Origin: Pantanalinema sp.
GTDB taxonomy: Bacteria > Cyanobacteriota > Sericytochromatia > S15B-MN24 > UBA4093
Direction of reading: 5' to 3'
NCBI GenBank assembly: GCA_036704125.1
Contig: DATNQI010000028.1
Location: forward strand, 1 to 64,000
DNA length: 64,000 nucleotides
The notes beneath the pieces are model-generated. The model saw only the letters and a list, made by a program, of their open reading frames with translations, was not told where the DNA came from and searched no databases. The translations under genes and the position numbers were made by a program. Below, piece by piece: positions 963 through 40,396 of this stretch (positions within the stretch are counted from its first letter, which is position 1; every line of letters begins with the position of its first letter).

Positions 963-2648
<1,686 letters not shown>

Positions 2649-13557: not shown

Positions 13558-14505
13558 TCAGGGCTCGATCGGTTCGTCGTGGGCCGGGCCTCCGTCCAGG
13601 ACCCGCTCCAGCAGGTGGCGATACGCCCGCGCCGCGCTGTCCGGCCTCATCAGCAGATCCCCGCCGGGCCCGAAGGTGACGTGTTTCGGCTCCTGGCTGG
13701 CGATGATCCGCCGGTCCTCCTCGAGGACCCTTCGATTGAAGCGGTTGAAGACGGGCGTCAGCAGCTTCGAACGGGCGAAGCGCCGCAGGCCGAGGATATA
13801 GACGCGGGTTTCCGTCGGGCCGACCGGCACGCCCCACATGTAGTTGACCATCCTCGGCGAGATCGAGAGGCGGTGAACGTTGGGCAGCCGGAACGTCAGC
13901 AAGCCGTCCTCGAGATCGAAGCCGTCGGGGCGAGGCGTCACCTTCGGCACGTGGGGGCCTCGCTGCTTGGCGAAGCGGCCGATGGTTCGTTCATGAACGA
14001 ACGGGAGGTGCCCCATGTCCAGCATGTTCTCCGCGAAGCGCGTGAAGTTGGTGGGCCACAGGTCCTCGATGATCCCCCAAGCCCAGCCGTGCTCGCGCAC
14101 CTCGGGCGGGACCGGGTCGCCTCCGGGAGCGGCGGCAGGATCCCGGCTCAAGAACACCCAGATGAGGCCCCCCGCCTCGATCGCGTGGTAGCGGGGAATG
14201 CGCAGGTTCGCGAGCCTGTGCGACGGCTCGCCGAGCGCCGGAATGGCCACGCAGCGGCCCTGCTCGTCGAACGTCCAGCCGTGGAAGGGACAGCTCAAGC
14301 AACCATCGTTCACGCGACCGAGCGAGAGCGAGGCCCCCAGGTGGGGACAGCGATCGCGCAGCGCCACGACCTCGCCGGCCCCGTCGCGGTAGAGGACCAG
14401 GCGCGTCTCCATGATCGTGACCGCCAGGGGCCTGCGGGGCTTGAGCTGGTGCGACCGGGCCGCGATGTACCAGAAGTCCCAGAGGTAGTAGGGCGCAGCC
14501 GGCAT
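13558..14505 (-). CDS. Rieske non-heme iron oxygenase
   Basis: A 315-residue aromatic ring-hydroxylating-type oxygenase. The N-terminal Rieske domain has C53-x-H55 and C72-x2-H75 (CPHLG and CPFHGW), binding a [2Fe-2S] cluster. The catalytic domain carries the mononuclear iron motif DMGHLPFVH (D-x2-H-x4-H). Overall it resembles the pheophorbide-a-oxygenase/VanA-like group rather than dioxygenases with a beta subunit, and no reductase is nearby. It lies ten bases downstream of the SDR gene and is probably transcribed with it from the promoter at 15505-15533, opposite a CarH-like regulator. The substrate is unknown; a light-related lipid, carotenoid or pigment substrate is only inference. Confidence 0.85.
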   Translation of the reverse strand: MPAAPYYLWDFWYIAARSHQLKPRRPLAVTIMETRLVLYRDGAGEVVALRDRCPHLGASLSLGRVNDGCLSCPFHGWTFDEQGRCVAIPALGEPSHRLANLRIPRYHAIEAGGLIWVFLSRDPAAAPGGDPVPPEVREHGWAWGIIEDLWPTNFTRFAENMLDMGHLPFVHERTIGRFAKQRGPHVPKVTPRPDGFDLEDGLLTFRLPNVHRLSISPRMVNYMWGVPVGPTETRVYILGLRRFARSKLLTPVFNRFNRRVLEEDRRIIASQEPKHVTFGPGGDLLMRPDSAARAYRHLLERVLDGGPAHDEPIEP

Positions 14506-14515
14506 GGGGGGCCTC

Positions 14516-15475
14516 CTAGCGACCGAGCTCGCTGCGAAGCGCCGCCTCGAGATCGGGTTGACGGAAGGTGAACCCGGTGGCCTGCAGCTTCGTCGGCAGG
14601 ACGCGCGCTCCCTGAAGCAGCAAGGCGTCGCCGAGCTCGCCGAACATCAGGCGAACGACCGGGGCCGGCAACGGGAAGAGCGTCGGCCGGCCGAGCACCT
14701 TTCCCAGGATCCGCGTGAACTCCGCGTTGGTCACCGGCTGCGGGGCGGTGGCGTTCACGGGCCCCCTCAGGGCCTCGGTGAAGAGGGCATGGTGGATCGC
14801 CCCGATGAGGTCGTCGAAGCCGATCCAGCTCATCCACTGCCGGCCGCCGCCGATCACCCCGCCGACCCCCATCGTGAAGGGCAGGATCATCTGCGCGAGC
14901 GCCCCCCCGCGCGCGGACAGCACGACGCCGGTTCGCAGGTGGACGACCCGGATTCCCGCCTGGCGAGCGGGCTCGGCGGCGGCTTCCCAGGCCTGACAAA
15001 CCTCGGAAAGAAAGCCAGTGCCCGGCGCGCTGTCCTCGGTGAGGACGGCGTCAGCGCGCGAGCCGTAGTAACCGATCGCCGAGGCGCAGACCAGGACGCT
15101 GGGCGCTCGGCGCAGCTTTGCAAGTCCCTCGGCGAGCAAGCGCGTCCCCTCCACGCGGCTCTCGAGAATCGCGGCCTTGCGAGCCGGCGTCCAGCGCCCG
15201 CCCGCGATGCTTTCGCCCGCCAGGTGCACCACCGCGTCGGCGCCCTCGAGCCCCTCCAGGTCCAGCTGACCCCGCGCCGGGTCCCACGAGATCTCATGCG
15301 CGCCCGCCTCGCGCCGCACAAGCGGCCAGACGGCGTGCCCGCCGGTCTCGAGGAAAGATCCGAGCCGCGTGCCGACGAACCCCGAGGCGCCCGTGATGGC
15401 GATCCGCTGGGTTCCAATTTGAGCGAAGGCCTGATGGCGCCGCTCGAGAGGGGTGCTCGCTTCGAAGACGTTCAT
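14516..15475 (-). CDS. TIGR01777-family NAD(P)-dependent epimerase/SDR
   Basis: A 319-residue extended short-chain dehydrogenase of the YfcH/SulA-like TIGR01777 family. The nucleotide-binding loop is GASGFVGTRL, and YYGSRAD carries the Tyr of the active site. The DUF1731-like C-terminus TGFTFRQPDLEAAL is typical of the family. Of three possible ATG codons, the one at 15475 has GGAGG six bases upstream. It is the first gene of a two-gene operon with the Rieske oxygenase and is transcribed divergently from the MerR/B12 regulator. The family is common in cyanobacteria and proteobacteria, and its substrate is not established. Confidence 0.85.
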   Translation of the reverse strand: MNVFEASTPLERRHQAFAQIGTQRIAITGASGFVGTRLGSFLETGGHAVWPLVRREAGAHEISWDPARGQLDLEGLEGADAVVHLAGESIAGGRWTPARKAAILESRVEGTRLLAEGLAKLRRAPSVLVCASAIGYYGSRADAVLTEDSAPGTGFLSEVCQAWEAAAEPARQAGIRVVHLRTGVVLSARGGALAQMILPFTMGVGGVIGGGRQWMSWIGFDDLIGAIHHALFTEALRGPVNATAPQPVTNAEFTRILGKVLGRPTLFPLPAPVVRLMFGELGDALLLQGARVLPTKLQATGFTFRQPDLEAALRSELGR

Positions 15476-15504: not shown

Positions 15505-15533
15505 AGTGTAGGGAGGCACCTCGATCCTGTCAA
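15505..15533 (-). promoter_or_regulatory. Strong promoter for the SDR-Rieske operon
   Basis: On the minus strand TTGACA (15528-15533) and TACACT (15505-15510) are separated by exactly 17 bp. The -35 box is a perfect consensus. It faces the divergent TTGACA of the regulator gene, with 21 bp between the two boxes. Confidence 0.75.
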
Positions 15534-15554
15534 TGAGTTGTCCATTACAAATAA

Positions 15555-15584
15555 TTGACAAAACCACCCCCGCTCGGGTAGAAA
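15555..15584 (+). promoter_or_regulatory. Promoter of the CarH-like regulator, with overlapping inverted repeat
   Basis: TTGACA at 15555-15560 and TAGAAA at 15579-15584 are 18 bp apart, within the long spacing seen at MerR-family promoters. The two opposed TTGACA boxes (TGTCAA at 15528 and TTGACA at 15555) and TTGTC at 15539 form inverted repeats that could be the operator for both directions. Confidence 0.55.
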
Positions 15585-15602
15585 GTAGGCGGGAGGACCC
15601 TC

Positions 15603-16502
15603 ATGCCAGACTCCGGCAAGTATCAGATCAAGGCCGTTTGCCAGCTGACGGGCCTCAGCTCGGACGTCATTCGCGCCTGGGAGCGGCGGTACGGTGCGAT
15701 CTCGCCCGTTCGCGCCGAACGAAACCTGCGCCTCTACAGCGAACGCGATGTCGCGCGGCTCCTGTTGCTCAAGCAAGCGACAGGAGCCGGCCACGCCATC
15801 GGCCGGATCGCCACGCTCGCGGACGCCGATCTGGCCTCGCTCGTCACGCCCGTCGCGCCTGCTCGCGCGCATGACCAGGGCTTGCCTGCCCAGCGGATCA
15901 TCGCCGCGATCGAGCGGCTGGACTACACGGCGGCGGATGAAGCGCTCGGCCAGGCCGCTGTGGTGATTCCTGCCGCGCAGCTGATCCGCGAGGTCGTGCT
16001 GCCCGTGCTGGAGCACGTCGGCGCCCGGTGGTCGCAGTATCCGCTCGGAATCGCCGCAGAGCACCTGGCGACCTCGCTCTTGAGAAGCCTCCTGGGAGCG
16101 CTCCTGAGGACGCGACACATCGACAGGCTCCATGCACCGGTCTTGCTGGGAACCTTGCCAGGGGAGCCACACGAGATGGGGCTGCTCGTCGCAGCCCTGA
16201 CCATCGCCTCGTGCGGGGTTCCAGTCTGTTACCTGGGCCCGAACCTCCCCGCTTCCGGGCTGGCCCTCGCCGCCAAGCAGATCGGGGCATTCGCCGTGGG
16301 AATCAGCGTCGTCAACAGCCCCGACGAGGCGCAGCTCTCCGAGCTCGATCGGCTCGCGAGCGAGCTCGCGCCCGGGACCGCACTCTGGCTCGGCGGCCAG
16401 GGGGCGCTCTCGGCGCCCCCTGGCGCGCTGCCTGCCAGGTCTCTCGTGTTGGCGAGCCACGAGGCGATCGAAAGGCAGCTGCAGGATCCCGTGGTAAGGT
16501 GA
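15603..16502 (+). CDS. CarH/LitR-like MerR-family B12-dependent photoreceptor regulator
   Basis: A 299-residue protein with an N-terminal MerR helix-turn-helix (residues 7-75, YQIKAVCQLTGL), a helical cap domain (about 95-170) and a cobalamin-binding Rossmann domain (about 178-290). The cap carries the W-x9-EH signature of CarH/LitR proteins at W143...E153-H154. The cobalamin domain has ExHxxG (GEPHEMG) with His190 as the lower axial ligand. In the family, adenosylcobalamin-bound tetramers repress DNA in the dark and fall apart in light. Ser144 replaces the His that follows the Trp in Thermus CarH. It is divergent from the SDR-Rieske pair and is followed by an EamA exporter. Confidence 0.87.
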   Translation: MPDSGKYQIKAVCQLTGLSSDVIRAWERRYGAISPVRAERNLRLYSERDVARLLLLKQATGAGHAIGRIATLADADLASLVTPVAPARAHDQGLPAQRIIAAIERLDYTAADEALGQAAVVIPAAQLIREVVLPVLEHVGARWSQYPLGIAAEHLATSLLRSLLGALLRTRHIDRLHAPVLLGTLPGEPHEMGLLVAALTIASCGVPVCYLGPNLPASGLALAAKQIGAFAVGISVVNSPDEAQLSELDRLASELAPGTALWLGGQGALSAPPGALPARSLVLASHEAIERQLQDPVVR

Positions 16503-16551: not shown

Positions 16552-17427
16552 TTGAATAGCGCCAGGAACCTGCTGCCCGTCGCGGCGCTGATCGCAAGCA
16601 TCCTCTCCCTGACGCTCGGCACTTCGTTCGCCAAGCATCTCTTCCCGCTGATCGGGGCGCAGGGCACCACGAGCTTCCGCGTGACCTTCGCAGCCGTCAT
16701 CCTGCTTGCGATCTGGCGGCCCTGGCGCCTGCCGCTGTCCGCGCGCGAGGCACGAACGATCGCCCTTTACGGCGCCGCGCTCGGCCTGATGAACCTGACG
16801 TTCTACATGGCGCTGCGCACGATCCCGCTCGGGATCGCGATCGCCATCGAGATCACCGGACCGCTCTGCGTCGCGATGGCCGCCTCGCGCAGGCCCAGGG
16901 ACTTCGTCTGGATCGGCCTCGCGGTGCTGGGGTTGCTGCTGTTGCTGCCGCTCCACCAGAGCGCGAACCGGCTCGATCCGCTCGGCGTCGGCTACGCCCT
17001 CGCTTCTGCGGTGTGCTGGGCGCTCTACATCGTCTTCGGCCAGAGAGCGGGCAAGGCGCACGGCGGTCAGGCGACCTCGCTCGGCCTGACGGTCGCCGCT
17101 CTGGTCGTCCTCCCGTTCGGGCTCGCCCATGCCGGCGCCGCGCTCTTCAATCCGTCGCTGATGCTCGCGGGGCTCGGCGTCGGCATCATGTCGAGCGCGC
17201 TCCCCTATTCGCTGGAGATGATCGCGCTCAGGCGCCTCCCCAAAAAGACTTTCGGCGTCCTGCTCAGCCTGGAGCCCGCCGTGGGGGCGGTGATCGGGTT
17301 CATCGTCCTCGGCGAGACGCTGACGCCGAGGCAGTGGCTGGCGATCGGCAGCGTCATCGTCGCTTCGATCGGCAGCACACTCGGCGCGCGCAAGGCCGAG
17401 GGGGCCCGGGTCGAGAGCCGCCCTTAA
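16552..17427 (+). CDS. EamA/RhtA-type inner-membrane exporter
   Basis: A protein of about 291 residues with ten predicted membrane helices in two EamA repeats. It is closest in feel to RhtA threonine/homoserine exporters (blocks ALGLMNLTFYMALRTIPLGI and SSALPYSLEMIALRRLPKKTF). The only plausible start is TTG at 16552, with a weak GAAGAG upstream; the exact N-terminus is uncertain. It follows the photoreceptor regulator by 49 bp and is probably in the same transcript. The substrate (amino acid or other metabolite) cannot be told from sequence. Confidence 0.8.
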   Translation: MNSARNLLPVAALIASILSLTLGTSFAKHLFPLIGAQGTTSFRVTFAAVILLAIWRPWRLPLSAREARTIALYGAALGLMNLTFYMALRTIPLGIAIAIEITGPLCVAMAASRRPRDFVWIGLAVLGLLLLLPLHQSANRLDPLGVGYALASAVCWALYIVFGQRAGKAHGGQATSLGLTVAALVVLPFGLAHAGAALFNPSLMLAGLGVGIMSSALPYSLEMIALRRLPKKTFGVLLSLEPAVGAVIGFIVLGETLTPRQWLAIGSVIVASIGSTLGARKAEGARVESRP

Positions 17428-34311: not shown

Positions 34312-36177
34312 ATGAGGAAACAAGCGAGGTTCCTGGCCGCCCTCTCGGCAGCCACCAGCTTGATCGTTCTTGCGGGCTGCGGCCCGTCCGGTGGCGGCGA
34401 CAAGGGCGCCACCAAGGGCGGGGCCGCGGGCGGGGACGATCGAATCGCCCACGATGCGGCTCAGCGCACCTTCGTGCCGCCCGGCCAGCTCGACGATTAC
34501 TACCTGTTCTACTCGGGCGGTCACTCCGGCCAGGTCTACCTGGCGGGCATCCCCTCCATGCGCCACATCGCGACCATCCCGGTCTTCACGCCGTACCCCG
34601 GCACCGGCTACGGGTACGACGAAGAGTCCAAGAAGATGCTCGGCGGCTACACCTGGGGCGACGTGCACCACCCCTCGCTCTCGAAGACCAACGGCGACTA
34701 CGACGGCCGCTGGCTGTTCGTCAACGACAACGCCAACAACCGCGCGGCCCGCATCGACCTGCGCGACATGAAAACCCACCAGATCATCAAGATCCCGAAC
34801 GTCTCGGGCAACCACGGCTCGGCCTTCGTCACCAACAACACCGAGTACATCCTGTCGGCCTCGCGCTTCTCGGCGCCTCTGGCCGGCGGCTTCGCCCCGG
34901 TCAGCCAGTACAAGACCGCCTACCATGGCATCGTCGCGGGCGTGAAGATCGACCCCAAGACCGGCAACATGTCCAACGGCTTCCAGATCAAGATGCCGCC
35001 CCTGGACTTCGACCTGGGCAGCACCGGCAAGGGCCCCTCCGAGGGCTGGGCCTTCTGGACGAGCTACAACTCCGAGCGCGCCACCGGCCGCCTCGAGGTC
35101 ACCGCGAGCAAGAACCCCAAGGACTACGTCGTGGCCTGCAACTGGAAGGCGGCCGAGGCCGCGGTCAAGGCGGGCAAGGCCGACATGGTCGGCGGCGTCC
35201 CGGTCATCGACCCCGCCAAGGTGCCGGGCATCGTCTACCTCCTGCCCACCCCGTCGAGCCCGCACGGCGTCGACGTGACCCCCGACGGCAAGTACATGGC
35301 CGCCTCGGGCAAGCTCGCCCCGGTCGTGACCATCTTCGACTTCGCCAAGCTCCAGGCGGCGATCGACAAGAAGGACTTCACCGGCGACGAGGACGGCGTG
35401 CCGGTCGTGAAGTTCGAGTCGGTGAAGACCGCCGAGGTGCCCGTGGGCATGGGCCCGCTGCACACCGAGTACGACGACCAGGGCAACGCCTACACCTCGC
35501 TCTTCCTCGAGAGCGCGGTCGCCAAGTGGAAGGTCGGCACCTGGGAGGTCCTCGACAAGATCCCCGTCGCCTACAACGTCGGCCACATCGCCGCCGCAGG
35601 CGGCAACACCAGCCATCCGTACGGCAAGTACCTGGTCTCCCTGAACAAGCTCTCGAAGGGCCGTCACATCACCACCGGTCCCTCGCAGCCCGAGAGCTCG
35701 CAGCTCATCGACATCACCGGCAACAAGATGACGATGCTCTACGAGACCTTCACCGAGCCCGAGCCCCACTACGCCCAGATCATCAAGACGGATGCGATCA
35801 AGCCCATCGAGGTCTACCCGAAGGACGAGAACAAGAATCCCAACGCGATCTGGAACCCCAACGACGCGACGATCACCCGCAACGGCAAGGACGTGACCAT
35901 CAAGATGTTCACCATCCGCACCTTCTTCGCGCCGACCGAGATCGCGGTCAACAAGGGCGACCGGGTGACCATCCACGTCACCAACGCGGAGCAGACCCGC
36001 GACGAGATCCACGGCCTGGGCATCAGCGAGTACAACCTGAACGTGGTGATCGACCCGGGCGAGACCAAGACCGTGTCGTTCGTTGCGGACAAGCCGGGGG
36101 TCTTCCCCTTCTACTGCACGAACTTCTGTTCGGCGCTTCACCAGGAAATGCAGGGCTACTTGACTGTCAAGCCCTAG
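34312..36177 (+). CDS. nosZ: Nitrous-oxide reductase, clade II, predicted lipoprotein
   Basis: A 621-residue reductase of N2O to N2. The N-terminal seven-bladed propeller carries the CuZ motif DVHHP (H119, H120). The C-terminal cupredoxin domain has the CuA site C602-x3-C606-x3-H610-x2-M613 with His567. The signal peptide is Sec-type with no twin arginine and ends in LAGC, so Cys23 would be lipidated and the enzyme anchored at the membrane surface. This marks a clade II (atypical) NosZ. A Gly/Lys-rich spacer of about 20 residues follows the lipid anchor. It leads the nos operon, behind an FNR-type box. Confidence 0.97.
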   Translation: MRKQARFLAALSAATSLIVLAGCGPSGGGDKGATKGGAAGGDDRIAHDAAQRTFVPPGQLDDYYLFYSGGHSGQVYLAGIPSMRHIATIPVFTPYPGTGYGYDEESKKMLGGYTWGDVHHPSLSKTNGDYDGRWLFVNDNANNRAARIDLRDMKTHQIIKIPNVSGNHGSAFVTNNTEYILSASRFSAPLAGGFAPVSQYKTAYHGIVAGVKIDPKTGNMSNGFQIKMPPLDFDLGSTGKGPSEGWAFWTSYNSERATGRLEVTASKNPKDYVVACNWKAAEAAVKAGKADMVGGVPVIDPAKVPGIVYLLPTPSSPHGVDVTPDGKYMAASGKLAPVVTIFDFAKLQAAIDKKDFTGDEDGVPVVKFESVKTAEVPVGMGPLHTEYDDQGNAYTSLFLESAVAKWKVGTWEVLDKIPVAYNVGHIAAAGGNTSHPYGKYLVSLNKLSKGRHITTGPSQPESSQLIDITGNKMTMLYETFTEPEPHYAQIIKTDAIKPIEVYPKDENKNPNAIWNPNDATITRNGKDVTIKMFTIRTFFAPTEIAVNKGDRVTIHVTNAEQTRDEIHGLGISEYNLNVVIDPGETKTVSFVADKPGVFPFYCTNFCSALHQEMQGYLTVKP

Positions 36178-36240
36178 CAGGCAACCATCGAGGGGCCCGG
36201 GCAGCCGGGCCCCTCACCACAGGGCTCAAAGGAGCAAGCC

Positions 36241-36849
36241 ATGGCCATCCCCAGAACCGACCGCCGCATGACCAAGATCCCGCGCCTTCTGGCGCTCGTC
36301 GCCGCCGTGCTCGTCGGTCTTTCCTTCCTCTTCCCCCTCTGGACCCTCCACCTCCAGGCACCCCAGTACCCCGAGATGTTGAACCTCAACGTCTACGCCT
36401 ACAAGCTCGAAGGCAGCGCCAACCCCCTGATCAACGACCTCCAGGAGATCAACACCCTCAACCACTACATCGGCATGGCCGAGATCCACGCCCAGAACTT
36501 CCCCGAGCTGAAGCTGATGCCCATCGCCCTGGCCGCAACGGCAGTCCTGCTTGTCCTGGCCGCGGCCCTCGCCTGGTGGGAGCTGCTCGCCGCCGCGACG
36601 GCGACCCTGGCGCTCACCGGCGTGGCCGGCATCGCCTCGGCCTACTTCAAGCTCTACTCCTACGGTCACAACCTGTCCCTGGACGCTCCTCTCAAGATCA
36701 AGGGCTTCACCCCGCCGCTGCTCGGCAGCAACAAGCTCGTGAACTTCATGACCCACGGCATGTTCGGGCTGGGCGGCTTCATGCTCATGGTGACCGGTGG
36801 GCTGCTGCTTTACGCCCTCTATCTGCACCTGAGGCCGCGAAGAGCGTGA
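36241..36849 (+). CDS. NosB-like membrane protein of the nos cluster
   Basis: A 202-residue inner-membrane protein with four transmembrane helices. A large periplasmic loop after TM1 carries the block NLNVYAYKLEG and INTLNHYIGMAEI. Proteins with this layout and loop recur between nosZ and nosD in clade II clusters, where a membrane protein called NosB is described. Its biochemical role is not established; support of NosZ maturation or electron supply is inference. Its TGA overlaps the ATG of nosD by one base. Confidence 0.8.
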   Translation: MAIPRTDRRMTKIPRLLALVAAVLVGLSFLFPLWTLHLQAPQYPEMLNLNVYAYKLEGSANPLINDLQEINTLNHYIGMAEIHAQNFPELKLMPIALAATAVLLVLAAALAWWELLAAATATLALTGVAGIASAYFKLYSYGHNLSLDAPLKIKGFTPPLLGSNKLVNFMTHGMFGLGGFMLMVTGGLLLYALYLHLRPRRA

Positions 36850-38210
36850 TGCGGCCGGCAGCGCTCATCCTGGTTGCAACCCTCGCGCCCCTGGCCCTCC
36901 CGTTTGCGGTCCGGGCCGCCGAGTGGCGCGTGGGCCCGGGCGGCTTTCCCACCATCGCTGCGGCGATCGCCGCGGCGCATCCCGGCGACGTGATCCGCAT
37001 CCCGGCCGGCCGCTACCCGGAGCGGCTTTTCCTCGACAAGCCGCTGACCCTGGTGGGCGAGGGCATGCCCACCATCGACGGCCTCGGCAAGGGCGACGTC
37101 GTCGCCGTCAAGGCGCCCGGCTGCCGGATCGTCGGCCTGCACCTGACGGGCAGCAGCCGCGAGATCCTCTCGGACGCGGCCGCCATCAAGATCGACGCCG
37201 ACCGCACGGTGGTCGAGCGCTGCACGATCGACCAGAGCCTTTACGGCCTCTACATCAGCGACACCCAGCACGCCCGAATCATGAATAATGACATCACCGG
37301 GATCGCGACCATGGGCATCCACGAGCGCGGGGACGGGATCCGCCTTCACAACTCCGCGCACAACCTGATCAAGGGCAACCGGATCCAGGACACGCGCGAC
37401 GGGATCTACTTCAACGCCTCGCCCTTCAACGACATGCGGGACAACGCGATCCGCCGGGTGCGCTACGGCCTGCATTACATGTCCTCGGACGACAACACCT
37501 TCAGCCGCAACCGCTTCACCGAGACCGAGGCGGGCTCGGCCCTGATGTTCAGCCGGCGCATCCACCTGCGCGACAACCTCTTCGCGGGCAACCGGGGCTA
37601 CCGCGCCTACGGCCTCTTGATCAAGGACTGCGAGGACAGCACCGTCGAGGGCAACGCCGTGGTGGGCAACCGCGTGGGCATCTTCCTGGACGGGGCCATG
37701 CGCTCGACGATCACCCGCAACCGGGTCGTGGGCAACGACCTCGGCTTCGAGGTCCGCGGCAGCTCCGAGGGCAACACCCTCTCGGCCAACACCATCGCGG
37801 GCAACACCGAGACGATCGCGACCCCCACCGGCATCGGCGAGAACACCTGGCGCGGCAACTACTGGAGCGACTACCGCGGCTACGACCTGGACGGCGACGG
37901 CCTGGGGGACGTTCCCCACGAGGCCGGGAGCGTCTTCTCCTTCCTGGTCGAGAACTACCCGCCCGCGCGCCTCTTCCTGCTGAGCCCCGCCGTGCAGGCC
38001 CTGGAGTTCGCCGAGCGTACCTTCCCCATCGTCGACGCGCCGAGCATCCGGGATCCGGCCCCGGCCGTCCACCCCACCGTCGCCGCCGAGCCGGCAGCGG
38101 GTGAACGGCGAGAGGCGTCGCCCAGCGCGCCCTTCCTGGCCCTGGCCGCCGGCCTCCTGCTGCTCGGCCTGCTTCCCCTCCTTGCATCACGAAGAGCACT
38201 GCGCCCATGA
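36849..38210 (+). CDS. nosD: NosD copper-site maturation protein
   Basis: A 453-residue periplasmic protein with a Sec signal peptide and a right-handed parallel beta-helix built from repeated NxI/NxF turns (NNDITG, GNRIQD, DNAIRR, RNRFTE). NosD works with NosF and NosY in assembly of the CuZ sulfide cluster of NosZ. After the helix and a Pro/Ala linker there is a C-terminal hydrophobic segment (FLALAAGLLLLGLLPLLA) and a basic end, predicting a membrane tether that typical proteobacterial NosD lacks. The ATG overlaps the previous stop, and its own stop overlaps nosF. Confidence 0.93.
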   Translation: MRPAALILVATLAPLALPFAVRAAEWRVGPGGFPTIAAAIAAAHPGDVIRIPAGRYPERLFLDKPLTLVGEGMPTIDGLGKGDVVAVKAPGCRIVGLHLTGSSREILSDAAAIKIDADRTVVERCTIDQSLYGLYISDTQHARIMNNDITGIATMGIHERGDGIRLHNSAHNLIKGNRIQDTRDGIYFNASPFNDMRDNAIRRVRYGLHYMSSDDNTFSRNRFTETEAGSALMFSRRIHLRDNLFAGNRGYRAYGLLIKDCEDSTVEGNAVVGNRVGIFLDGAMRSTITRNRVVGNDLGFEVRGSSEGNTLSANTIAGNTETIATPTGIGENTWRGNYWSDYRGYDLDGDGLGDVPHEAGSVFSFLVENYPPARLFLLSPAVQALEFAERTFPIVDAPSIRDPAPAVHPTVAAEPAAGERREASPSAPFLALAAGLLLLGLLPLLASRRALRP

Positions 38211-39133
38211 TTCGAATCGAGAACCTGGCAAAGGAATACGGAGCGCTCAAGGCGCTCGACGGGCTGAGCCTCGAGACCCGCTCGGGCGAGGTCCTGGCGC
38301 TCCTGGGCCCCAACGGCGCCGGCAAGAGCACGACCATCAAGAGCATCGTCGGCCTCGTGACGCCCACGCGCGGCCGGGTCCTGATCGACGGGATCGACGT
38401 GGCGCGCGAGCCCCGGCGCGCCCGGGCCCTGATCGGCTACCTGCCGCAGCGGGTCCACTTCTACGACAACCTCACCCCGCGCGAGGTGCTGGCCTTCTAC
38501 GCGCAGCTGCGCAAGGCCCCCCGCACCCAGATCGCCCCTTTGATCGAGCACGTCGGCCTCGGCCATGCCGCCGATCGGCGCACCGCTGGCTTCTCGGGGG
38601 GCATGCTGCAGCGCCTGGGCCTGGCCGTCGCGCTGTTGGGCGAGCCACGCCTGTTGGTGCTCGACGAGCCGACCGCGGGGCTCGACCCCGAGGGCTCGCT
38701 CCTCTTCAAGGAGACGATCCAGGAGCGCCGGCGCTCGGGGACGACCGTGCTGCTGTGCTCCCACCTGCTCGCCGAGGTCGAGTCCGTCGCCGACCGCATC
38801 GCCATCTGCAACCAGGGGCGCATCGCCGCCATCGACTCGCTGGATGCCATGCGCGAGAGCCTGGCCCTTCCGACCCGGATGGTCCTGCGGGTGGCGGGCG
38901 GTACCGATCCCGCGGCCATCGCCCTGCGCTCGGGGGCCCGCGAGGCGGAGCTGCGCGGCGAGACGTTGCGCCTGACCATCGACTATCACCGCAAGGCTGC
39001 GGTGATCCTGGCGCTCGAGGAGCGCGGGGTCGCCGTCCAGGACCTGCGCACCGAGGACCCGAGCCTTGAGGACATCTTCATGGCCGTCGTCCACCGCTCG
39101 ACTTCGTCCCCCGAGGAGGTATCCATCCGATGA
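38207..39133 (+). CDS. nosF: NosF ABC transporter ATP-binding protein
   Basis: A 308-residue ATPase with Walker A GPNGAGKST (34-42), signature FSGGMLQRLG, and Walker B LLVLDEPTAGLDP. With NosY it forms the ABC exporter that supplies a sulfur species or energy for CuZ assembly with NosD. The reading frame overlaps nosD by four bases (ATGA) and nosL by four bases (ATGA), so translation is coupled. The C-terminal 80 residues are the usual extension of NosF-like ATPases. Confidence 0.94.
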   Translation: MIRIENLAKEYGALKALDGLSLETRSGEVLALLGPNGAGKSTTIKSIVGLVTPTRGRVLIDGIDVAREPRRARALIGYLPQRVHFYDNLTPREVLAFYAQLRKAPRTQIAPLIEHVGLGHAADRRTAGFSGGMLQRLGLAVALLGEPRLLVLDEPTAGLDPEGSLLFKETIQERRRSGTTVLLCSHLLAEVESVADRIAICNQGRIAAIDSLDAMRESLALPTRMVLRVAGGTDPAAIALRSGAREAELRGETLRLTIDYHRKAAVILALEERGVAVQDLRTEDPSLEDIFMAVVHRSTSSPEEVSIR

Positions 39134-39567
39134 AGCCCACGATCCCGTCCGTCGCCCTGTTCGCGAGCCTGGCCCTGGTGGGCTTCACCAGCCAGGGCAA
39201 GCCGGTCGACGTCATGCCCGAGGCCGACGAGTGCGCCACCTGCGCCATGGCCGTCACCGACGTGCCCCTCTCCGCCGAGATCACCCTCAAGAACGGCGAC
39301 GTCAAGAAGTTCGACGACATCGGCTGCATGGCCCAGTACGTCCGGCGCAAGAAGCTCCTTGAGGACAAGATCAAGGGCATGTTCGTGCACGACCTCAAGA
39401 GCGAGCGGTGGCTCCCGCTCGAGCGCGCGATCCTGGTCAAGAGCACGTACCCCACGCCCATGCGCTACGGCATCGTGGCCTTCTCGTCCCTTGCGGACGC
39501 CAAGGCGCTGCCTGCCAGGTACAAGGGCAAGACCGTCACCTGGTCTTCGGTGCTGAAGGGGTTTTAA
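39130..39567 (+). CDS. nosL: NosL copper chaperone
   Basis: A 145-residue NosL protein. The copper-binding motif is C35-x2-C38-x-M40 (CATCAM), and the DDIGCM block is also typical. NosL delivers Cu(I) to apo-NosZ. Most NosL proteins are lipoproteins, but here the hydrophobic leader (residues 7-19) has no lipobox cysteine, so it is either soluble periplasmic or held by an uncleaved anchor. It lies between nosF and nosY, a gene order different from the common D-F-Y-L. Confidence 0.92.
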   Translation: MKPTIPSVALFASLALVGFTSQGKPVDVMPEADECATCAMAVTDVPLSAEITLKNGDVKKFDDIGCMAQYVRRKKLLEDKIKGMFVHDLKSERWLPLERAILVKSTYPTPMRYGIVAFSSLADAKALPARYKGKTVTWSSVLKGF

Positions 39568-39568
39568 A

Positions 39569-40396
39569 ATGGAATGGCAACCCATCTGGACGATCGCCCA
39601 GCGCGAGCTCCTGGACGCCCTGCGCAGCCGCCTCGTCTGGATGTTCGCGGCGGTGTTCGCCGTCCTGGCGCTGGGCCTGTCGTACTTCGGCCTGGTCGGG
39701 GCGGGCTACGCCGAGGTGACCGGGTTCGCGAAGACCTCGGCCAGCCTGCTCAACCTGGTGCTGATCCTCTTTCCTCTGGTCGCGCTCTTCCTGGGCACCT
39801 CGAGCATGACCAGCGAGCGCGGAGCCCTCGAGCTGCTGCTCTCCCAGCCCGTGACCCGCTCCGAGGTGATGGTCGGCAAGTTCCTGGGCCTGGCCCTGAC
39901 GCTGGTCGCCTCGACCCTGGTGGGGTTCGGCGCGGCCGGTCTGGTCATCGGCGTCCGGGCGGGCGGCGCCGACGCCGGGCGCTTCCTGGCCCTGACGGGG
40001 CTTGCGATCGCCCTGGAGGTCGCCTTCCTGAGCGTTTCCCTGCTCATCTCGGCAGTGACGGCCGACCGGGTGCGCGCCCTGGGGGCCGCCGTCGCGGTCT
40101 GGTTCGGCAGCGTCATCCTCTACGACCTGTTGGTGGTCGGCGGGGCCGTGCTCATCGGCGCCAAGCAGCTCTCGGCCGCCCTGGTCCTCTTGCTGTTCCT
40201 GAACCCGGTGGACCTGGTCAGGGTGCTGGGCATCCTGAGCCTCGACTCGGCGACTGCCTTCGGGGCCACCGGGGCGAGCCTGATGCGCATGTTCGGCCCC
40301 GTCGGCGCCCTCGTCGCCCTGATCGTCGCCCTGGCGCTCTGGATGGTCGCCCCATTGGGGCTCGCCCTGCGCCTGTTCCGCCGCGCCGACCTCTAA
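39569..40396 (+). CDS. nosY: NosY ABC transporter permease
   Basis: A 275-residue ABC-2-type permease with six predicted membrane helices. The N-terminal block WTIAQRELLDALRSRL and LELLLSQPVTRSEVMVGKFL are characteristic of NosY. It pairs with NosF. It begins one base after the nosL stop and is the last gene of the cluster, which closes with a 20-bp hairpin. No nosR, nosX, nosG, nosH or cytochrome nosC genes follow. Confidence 0.93.
   Translation: MEWQPIWTIAQRELLDALRSRLVWMFAAVFAVLALGLSYFGLVGAGYAEVTGFAKTSASLLNLVLILFPLVALFLGTSSMTSERGALELLLSQPVTRSEVMVGKFLGLALTLVASTLVGFGAAGLVIGVRAGGADAGRFLALTGLAIALEVAFLSVSLLISAVTADRVRALGAAVAVWFGSVILYDLLVVGGAVLIGAKQLSAALVLLLFLNPVDLVRVLGILSLDSATAFGATGASLMRMFGPVGALVALIVALALWMVAPLGLALRLFRRADL

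What the first reader, a model, noticed from the sequence alone, without database searches (positions are those of the whole stretch)
15505..16502. CarH/LitR-like B12 photoreceptor facing an SDR-Rieske operon in a genome with no visible photosynthesis genes
The regulator has the W-x9-EH and ExHxxG motifs of adenosylcobalamin photoreceptors. It is divergent from a strong TTGACA-17-TACACT promoter driving an epimerase and a Rieske oxygenase. The two opposed TTGACA boxes form an inverted repeat between the promoters. This makes a self-contained candidate light-controlled module whose oxygenase substrate is unknown.
Basis: partly seen in the sequence, partly recalled or inferred. Interest (0 to 1): 0.65.

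Follow-up and report, generated by a model that had tools for sequence, protein, structure and literature searches.

The report
Vitamin-B12 light switch controlling an oxygenase
A bacterium that is probably a non-photosynthetic cousin of the cyanobacteria carries a vitamin-B12 light-sensing repressor that appears to control just one small enzyme operon (a reductase and an iron-sulfur oxygenase), with none of the pigment or DNA-repair genes such switches usually run, which makes it a compact and testable light response of a new type.

Summary
ORF 15603-16502 (+) is a class I CarH/LitR-type regulator: MerR helix-turn-helix, four-helix bundle with W-x9-EH, and an intact cobalamin motif. It carries the full published light signature (GxxW, EH, GxxH, GxxxP). 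Its best sequence and fold match is Thermus CarH. It faces a tightly coupled TIGR01777-Rieske operon (15475-13558). The 33 bp between the two -35 boxes form a CarH-type operator: TnnACA repeats at exact 11-bp spacing, running into each -35 box. This repeat pair occurs once in the 64-kb window. A longer form of it occurs once in the 3.5-Mb genome. The operator recurs at the carH cluster of a same-order genome (26/34 identical), and the repeat pair lies upstream of 41 of 80 named carH relatives (about 2 expected). The genome has no photosystem, photolyase, DPRP, rhodopsin or phytoene-synthase-like gene, but has the enzyme that makes adenosylcobalamin. TIGR01777 recurs in carH clusters elsewhere; the Rieske partner was found only here. 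The His that caps cobalt in lit Thermus CarH is Ser here, as in most relatives; one natural relative lacking it still falls apart in light. Light response itself is untested.

The parts
15603..16502 (+). carH-like gene: MerR HTH + four-helix bundle (W143, E153, H154) + cobalamin Rossmann domain (H190)
14516..15475 (-). TIGR01777-family NAD(P)-dependent oxidoreductase (ORF open back to GTG 15496; ATG 15475 has the better ribosome-binding site)
   Evidence: TIGR01777 329 bits, ThyD model 278 bits; 60% identical to the C-terminal part of the G003 carH-cluster protein
13558..14505 (-). Rieske non-haem iron oxygenase, VanA_C type; 10-bp gap to the gene before it, whose stop codon overlaps the ribosome-binding site
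   Evidence: catalytic residues C53 H55 C72 H75 D163 H166 H171 D289 invariant in 11 homologues; fold match SxtT/GxtA, NdmA, DdmC monooxygenases
15528..15560 (.). Proposed CarH operator spanning both -35 boxes
15539..15544 (-). Operator repeat TGGACA, 11 bp upstream of the operon -35 box
15528..15533 (-). Operator repeat TTGACA = -35 box of the TIGR01777-Rieske operon
15505..15510 (-). -10 box TACACT of the TIGR01777-Rieske operon
15544..15549 (+). Imperfect operator repeat ATTACA, 11 bp upstream of the carH -35 box
   Evidence: sequence; rule in PMC9304148
15555..15560 (+). Operator repeat TTGACA = probable -35 box of carH; weak -10 TAGAAA at 15579-15584 (18-bp spacer)
   Evidence: sequence; inference
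16552..17427 (+). EamA/RhtA-like exporter 49 bp after carH, possibly co-transcribed with it
   Evidence: RhtA model 332.7 bits, cut-off 354
963..2648 (+). Methylmalonyl-CoA mutase large-domain protein, an AdoCbl enzyme: evidence that the cell uses the chromophore (context, not part of the module)

Best explanation
A CarH-type, adenosylcobalamin-dependent light-responsive repressor controls its own gene and one divergent two-gene operon. In the dark, AdoCbl-bound oligomers sit on the 33-bp operator, cover both -35 boxes and block both promoters. Green, blue or near-UV light breaks the Co-C bond, the oligomer falls apart or lets go, and the operon is transcribed. Shown here by sequence: domain architecture, cofactor and light signature, operator and its position, conservation of operator and TIGR01777 partner in other genomes, AdoCbl supply. 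Inferred: repression, oligomerisation, light release. Because Ser144 replaces the light-state axial His, release probably resembles CtMerR (Arg at that place, no bis-His state, yet tetramer to monomer in light) rather than Thermus CarH. Output: a TIGR01777 reductase, a recurrent member of light/photolyase clusters whose cyanobacterial homologue ThyD acts in high-light acclimation, plus a Rieske monooxygenase acting on an unknown, probably endogenous, small molecule as part of a photoprotective response.
For: Protein: Pfam/NCBIfam/PDB matches; fold matches are all TtCarH structures, CBD TM about 0.8; W-x9-EH, full B12 motif and full GxxW/EH/GxxH/GxxxP signature, the signature validated in PMC11796333. 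Operator: TnnACA-N5-TnnACA pair, the published CarH rule (PMC9304148), occurs once in the 64-kb window, between these two genes; a 24-base form occurs once in the 3.5-Mb genome, and in G003 all three hits lie in its carH cluster; 26/34 identity to the G003 carH-folE spacer, 0 of 300 shuffles reach it; 41 of 80 named carH relatives have such a pair upstream, 2 expected; the rule recovers the three-repeat operator of T. thermophilus as positive control. Partner: TIGR01777 lies with photolyase, FolE, SDR and amine oxidase around G003 carH, is divergent from carH in L136 and L188 and near carH in 8 of 80 loci, and in G004 has its own 11-bp repeat pair though unlinked to carH. Chromophore: adenosyltransferase 9.4e-62 and methylmalonyl-CoA mutase. 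Precedent without the axial His: CtMerR; only 22 of 66 W-x9-EH relatives have that His.
Against: No experiment. TtCarH H132A is reported in PMC10442372 to stay mostly tetrameric in light, so a Ser at this place could mean a weak or absent light response. The protein scores 130 bits against the NCBIfam CarH model whose cut-off is 400. Carotenoid and photolyase genes, the usual targets, were not found. The Rieske gene is linked to carH and TIGR01777 only here. Only two perfect repeats lie on one strand and one perfect plus one imperfect on the other, fewer than in Thermus.
Confidence: 0.76

Rival explanations
1. The regulator is an AdoCbl (cofactor-status) sensor rather than a light sensor: AdoCbl loading represses the operon, loss of AdoCbl derepresses it, and without the light-state His the photoproduct does not release DNA efficiently.
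For: Ser144 in place of the light-state His; TtCarH H132A mostly fails to disassemble (PMC10442372); an AdoCbl-dependent enzyme is encoded 13 kb away.
Against: A natural relative with Arg at this place (CtMerR) still goes from tetramer to monomer in light (PMC11796333). AdoCbl is photolabile in any case. Partner genes in carH clusters of relatives are photolyases and other light genes.
Confidence: 0.13
2. The protein is a CarA-like, B12-independent repressor, or responds to another signal such as a partner photoreceptor or anti-repressor, with the cobalamin fold kept as scaffold.
For: CarA of Myxococcus and class II LitR of Pseudomonas are B12-independent members of the wider family (PMC9304148, PMC9758184). 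Several same-class proteins (f6 genomes) have lost W-x9-EH.
Against: W-x9-EH, the lower-ligand His motif and the full light signature are all intact in this protein. No LOV or CarS-like gene was noticed next to it.
Confidence: 0.07
3. CarH regulates only itself and the TIGR01777 gene; the Rieske gene merely sits downstream and its function has nothing to do with light.
For: Among 80 named carH loci only two have any Rieske ORF with a readable motif context, in other arrangements. The CarH-TIGR01777 pairing, in contrast, recurs.
Against: A 10-bp gap with the stop codon overlapping the ribosome-binding site makes co-transcription almost certain. Co-regulation therefore follows even if the biochemical link is unclear.
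Confidence: 0.2

Closest known systems
Thermus thermophilus CarH/LitR and its crtB-phr operon (PDB 5c8d/5c8e/5c8f)
   Same: Same domain order, W-x9-EH, lower-ligand His, divergent carH-operon arrangement, 11-bp-spaced TnnACA operator overlapping a -35 box.
   Different: About 33-37% identity; Ser144 instead of His132; operator built head-to-head over two -35 boxes instead of three repeats in one direction; targets are TIGR01777 + Rieske, not crtB and photolyase.
CtMerR (PDB 8jbs/8jbt, PMC11796333)
   Same: CarH-like light-responsive tetramer without the axial light-state His.
   Different: Arg there, Ser here; its DNA-binding domain is very unlike CarH's (25% identity to Thermus CarH), while the window protein keeps RxWERRY.
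Light-regulated phr-cfa-folE clusters under LitR (Pseudomonas PplR/PmlR; in this class G003, G010, G004)
   Same: A LitR/CarH-family repressor with redox enzymes of light response; TIGR01777 lies in the G003 cluster with photolyase-type protein and FolE.
   Different: The window genome has no photolyase or DPRP; its cluster is cut down to TIGR01777 plus a Rieske oxygenase not seen in the others.
ThyD of Anabaena (TIGR01777 family)
   Same: Same family (278 bits to the ThyD model); ThyD acts in high-light acclimation (PMC12288457).
   Different: Below the ThyD cut-off of 400; no thylakoids expected here; ThyD is not known to be under CarH.
Rieske monooxygenases SxtT/GxtA, NdmA, dicamba monooxygenase, HpxD
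   Same: Rieske and mononuclear-iron ligands, overall fold (TM about 0.8).
   Different: Only 21-29% identical to the nearest solved ones and about 30% to HpxD; substrate cannot be inferred.

Membership tests
CarH / class I LitR (AdoCbl photoreceptor repressors) | MerR-type HTH with RxWERRY recognition helix | tested here: met
   R24-A-W-E-R-R-Y30
CarH / class I LitR (AdoCbl photoreceptor repressors) | Intact W-x9-EH in the four-helix bundle | tested here: met
   W143, E153, H154
CarH / class I LitR (AdoCbl photoreceptor repressors) | Classic D/ExHx2G-x41-SxT/V-x22-27-GG cobalamin motif | tested here: met
   exact match, x41 and x26
CarH / class I LitR (AdoCbl photoreceptor repressors) | Light signature GxxW, EH, GxxH, GxxxP (PMC11796333) | tested here: met
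CarH / class I LitR (AdoCbl photoreceptor repressors) | His after the Trp (His132 of Thermus, upper ligand in lit state); frequent but not universal in the family | tested here: not met
   Ser144; His in only 22 of 66 relatives with W-x9-EH; PMC9304148 says 'many' homologues have it, so it is not treated as defining
CarH / class I LitR (AdoCbl photoreceptor repressors) | Operator of 11-bp-spaced TnnACA repeats over a promoter | tested here: met
CarH / class I LitR (AdoCbl photoreceptor repressors) | AdoCbl-dependent DNA binding released by light | not testable with these tools
   needs purified protein
NCBIfam NF052513 (CarH equivalog model) | Score of at least 400 bits | tested here: not met
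   130 bits, so not filed as that equivalog; same-class W-x9-EH relatives score 126-144
Carotenogenesis-type CarH regulon | Linked crt genes or a phytoene synthase in the genome | tested here: not met
   only SQS_PSY protein is closest to squalene synthase, though below that model's cut-off
Photolyase-type LitR/CarH regulon | Photolyase or DPRP gene | tested here: not met
   no PF00875 and no PF04244 in G000, 96% complete
TIGR01777 oxidoreductases | Score above 207.35 bits | tested here: met
   329 bits
ThyD | Score above 400 bits to NF050030 | tested here: not met
   278 bits
Rieske non-haem iron oxygenases (VanA_C type) | CxH..CxxH cluster ligands, DxxHx4H and a downstream Asp iron ligand | tested here: met
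   invariant in 11 homologues; fold

The most novel reading that the evidence does not exclude
A minimal CarH regulon in a non-photosynthetic class of the cyanobacterial phylum, with a single operator in the genome, uses a CarH lacking the light-state axial His to drive a TIGR01777 reductase and a Rieske oxygenase. These would carry out a light-triggered small-molecule modification (for example of a photosensitising or membrane compound) not known as a CarH output, and the His-free switching would be the common mode in a large uncharacterised CarH clade.
Probability: 0.35. Interest if true: 0.7.

Novelty: new variant of a known kind. Interest (0 to 1): 0.52.

Why it matters
CarH is known mainly as a switch for carotenoids and, in its wider family, photolyase clusters. 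Here the switch and its operator are kept while both usual outputs appear to be gone, leaving one two-gene operon: a clean system for asking what else a bacterium needs to do when light arrives. It would place B12-based light sensing in a non-photosynthetic class of the cyanobacterial phylum (0 of 368 sampled genomes of the phylum outside that class have a match). It also adds to evidence that most CarH-like proteins do not have the bis-His light state seen in Thermus. The 11-bp-repeat rule, found upstream of 41 of 80 relatives, gives a simple way to predict CarH targets in genomes.

Tried and rejected
(1) A single-protein scan of genome contigs found no relatives; the alignment-based scan did. 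(3) Carotenoid regulation: rejected because the only SQS_PSY protein is squalene-synthase-like. (4) Counting all same-class MerR-B12 proteins as CarH: rejected, the five from family f6 lack W-x9-EH. (5) Rieske substrate by homology: nearest solved folds are 21-29% identical, nearest plasmid homologue 36% and unannotated, so none assigned. (6) A CarH-TIGR01777-Rieske trio elsewhere: not found in 80 loci; L148 and L129 have Rieske ORFs in other arrangements. (7) T. thermophilus SDR genes near carH as TIGR01777: not that family. (9) The careful protein tree did not finish; only the quick tree is used. (10) Sumi 2020 and the ThyD primary paper are not in the library.

Full report
WHAT IS THERE. 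The window is contig C28 of a 3.51-Mb, 102-contig genome (96% complete, 2% contaminated). ORF 15603-16502 (+) encodes 299 aa with MerR_1, B12-binding_2 and B12-binding domains. By sequence its closest solved proteins are T. thermophilus CarH chains (E 1.6e-30). An AlphaFold model from 29 homologues (mean pLDDT 91.9) matches TtCarH structures first; the cobalamin-binding half superposes with TM about 0.8 on the target, while full-length TM is about 0.55, presumably because the HTH is hinged. W143-x9-E153-H154, the strict cobalamin motif (ExHx2G-x41-SxV-x26-GG) and the experimentally validated light signature GxxW/EH/GxxH/GxxxP are all present (PMC9304148; PMC11796333). One pocket residue differs: the residue after Trp, His132 in Thermus, is Ser144.

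THE DIVERGENT OPERON. On the minus strand lie a TIGR01777 oxidoreductase (329 bits) and a Rieske/VanA_C oxygenase, 10 bp apart, with the stop codon of the first overlapping the AGGAGG of the second, so they are almost certainly one transcript. All cluster and iron ligands of the Rieske enzyme are intact and invariant in 11 homologues; its model (pLDDT 80) is closest to monooxygenases of the SxtT/GxtA, NdmA and dicamba type at 21-29% identity, which does not reveal a substrate.

THE OPERATOR. CarH binds tandem 11-bp repeats nnnnTnnACAn, usually over a -35 box (PMC9304148). On the minus strand the window has TGGACA (15544-15539) and, exactly 11 bp on, TTGACA (15533-15528), which is also the -35 box of TTGACA-17-TACACT. 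On the plus strand ATTACA (15544-15549, imperfect) and, 11 bp on, TTGACA (15555-15560) form the probable -35 box of carH. The two half-operators meet head to head, so one bound oligomer could shut both promoters. A pair TnnACA-N5-TnnACA occurs once in the whole 64-kb window, here. The longer pattern TTTGTNNTGGACAANNNNTTGACA (up to 3 mismatches) occurs once in G000, here, and three times in G003, all in its carH cluster; the reversed control pattern hits neither (the pattern was derived from these sites, so the informative part is the absence of others). The window spacer and the G003 carH-folE spacer share 26 of 34 positions without a gap; none of 300 dinucleotide shuffles reached this. In 80 named carH relatives from many phyla, 41 have such a pair within about 300 bp upstream, against about 2 expected from the loci's own background. 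The same rule returns the three-repeat operator of T. thermophilus carH as positive control.

NEIGHBOURHOOD ELSEWHERE. In G003 (same order) carH lies between a DPRP photolyase-type gene plus FAD amine oxidase and a folE plus SRPBCC-TIGR01777 fusion; that TIGR01777 part is 60% identical to the window protein. G010 has amine oxidase, SDR, a DUF1365-type gene and a CMAS/CFA methyltransferase; G004 has ferrochelatase, a DUF1295-type gene, SDR, amine oxidase and photolyase. These resemble light-regulated LitR clusters of Pseudomonas (PMC9758184). TIGR01777 matches occur near carH in 8 of 80 named loci, directly divergent in Bacteriovoracaceae L136 and Halobacteriovoraceae L188; one of the eight, L200, is weak and broken. 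In G004 the TIGR01777 gene is not linked to carH but has its own 11-bp repeat pair about 53 bp before its start; TIGR01777 genes of genomes without a W-x9-EH protein had none (small numbers). A Rieske gene next to carH was seen only in loosely similar form in L148 and L129. So the CarH-TIGR01777 link is recurrent, and the Rieske link is so far particular to this genome.

GENOME CONTEXT. No photosystem reaction centre, photolyase, DPRP or microbial rhodopsin was found in G000. Its one SQS_PSY protein is nearest to squalene synthase (135.8 bits against 56.8 for the best phytoene synthase model), below that model's cut-off. AdoCbl supply is likely: a PduO-type adenosyltransferase and methylmalonyl-CoA mutase (window 963-2648). 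CarH-like matches were found in 9 of 18 genomes of the class and in none of 368 sampled genomes of the phylum outside it. Of the nine, five (family f6) lack W-x9-EH and form a separate branch. In a quick tree the window protein pairs with G003 (support 84), outside the Thermus side, which speaks for a resident rather than a contaminant gene.

HOW IT MOST LIKELY WORKS. Dark: AdoCbl-loaded oligomer on 15528-15560 blocks both promoters. Light: Co-C photolysis, release, transcription. The missing axial His is the main doubt. TtCarH H132A was found mostly unable to fall apart in one study, which notes an earlier report to the contrary (PMC10442372). Against that, CtMerR, with Arg there, forms tetramers that become monomers in light (PMC11796333), and only 22 of 66 W-x9-EH relatives have the His; it is commoner on the Thermus side of the tree (12 of 22 proteins) than on the window side (10 of 57). 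I therefore keep light sensing as the most likely reading (about 0.75) and an AdoCbl-status sensor as the main rival. For the output, the recurrence of TIGR01777 in photolyase clusters, the high-light role of its homologue ThyD (PMC12288457) and ferrochelatase beside carH in G004 suggest photoprotection; which molecule the Rieske enzyme oxidises is unknown, and a photosensitiser or membrane lipid is a guess.

VERDICT. It is a known kind of switch with an unusual and minimal output: a new variant of a known kind.

Noticed in passing
L068:2861-5098, L069:2534-4755, L070:8283-10427: In three same-class genomes a MerR-B12 protein lacking W-x9-EH (has SHLAS instead of EHLAS) is divergent from a glyceraldehyde-3-phosphate dehydrogenase gene; two more (L065, L066) sit beside a hydantoinase-like gene. 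A possible separate, non-photosensory regulator branch.
   Followed up: partly
L121, L126, L127, L148, L152, L158, L166, L173, L181: A fasciclin-domain protein gene lies directly upstream of carH, often divergent, in Acidobacteria, Gemmatimonadetes, Bacteroidetes, Gammaproteobacteria and others: a recurrent candidate CarH target (recognised by eye from the sequence).
   Followed up: no
L130, L141, L144, L154, L160, L163: A sigma-70-like factor gene faces carH, mostly in Verrucomicrobia genomes, several with 11-bp TnnACA pairs between: possible light-controlled sigma factor.
   Followed up: no
L143, L156, L167, L174, L183, L196: Nitrospira-group carH genes face formylglycine-generating-enzyme-like (SUMF1-type) genes, with photolyase and TIGR01777 a few kb away in several.
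   Followed up: no
L067:9590-11625: In G004 a ferrochelatase (PF00762, 7.5e-87) follows carH on the same strand: lowering protoporphyrin IX, a photosensitiser, would fit a light response.
   Followed up: no
window 16552-17427: RhtA-like amino-acid exporter starts (TTG) 49 bp after carH and may be co-transcribed and thus light-regulated too.
   Followed up: no
window 34312-40396: Genes that read by eye as a nitrous-oxide reductase cluster (NosZ/NosD/NosF/NosL/NosY-like) in this genome.
   Followed up: no
L124 and L125: Near-identical carH and ABC-F ATPase genes in MAG contigs labelled Janthinobacterium and Planktophila; at least one of the two contigs is probably mis-binned.
   Followed up: no
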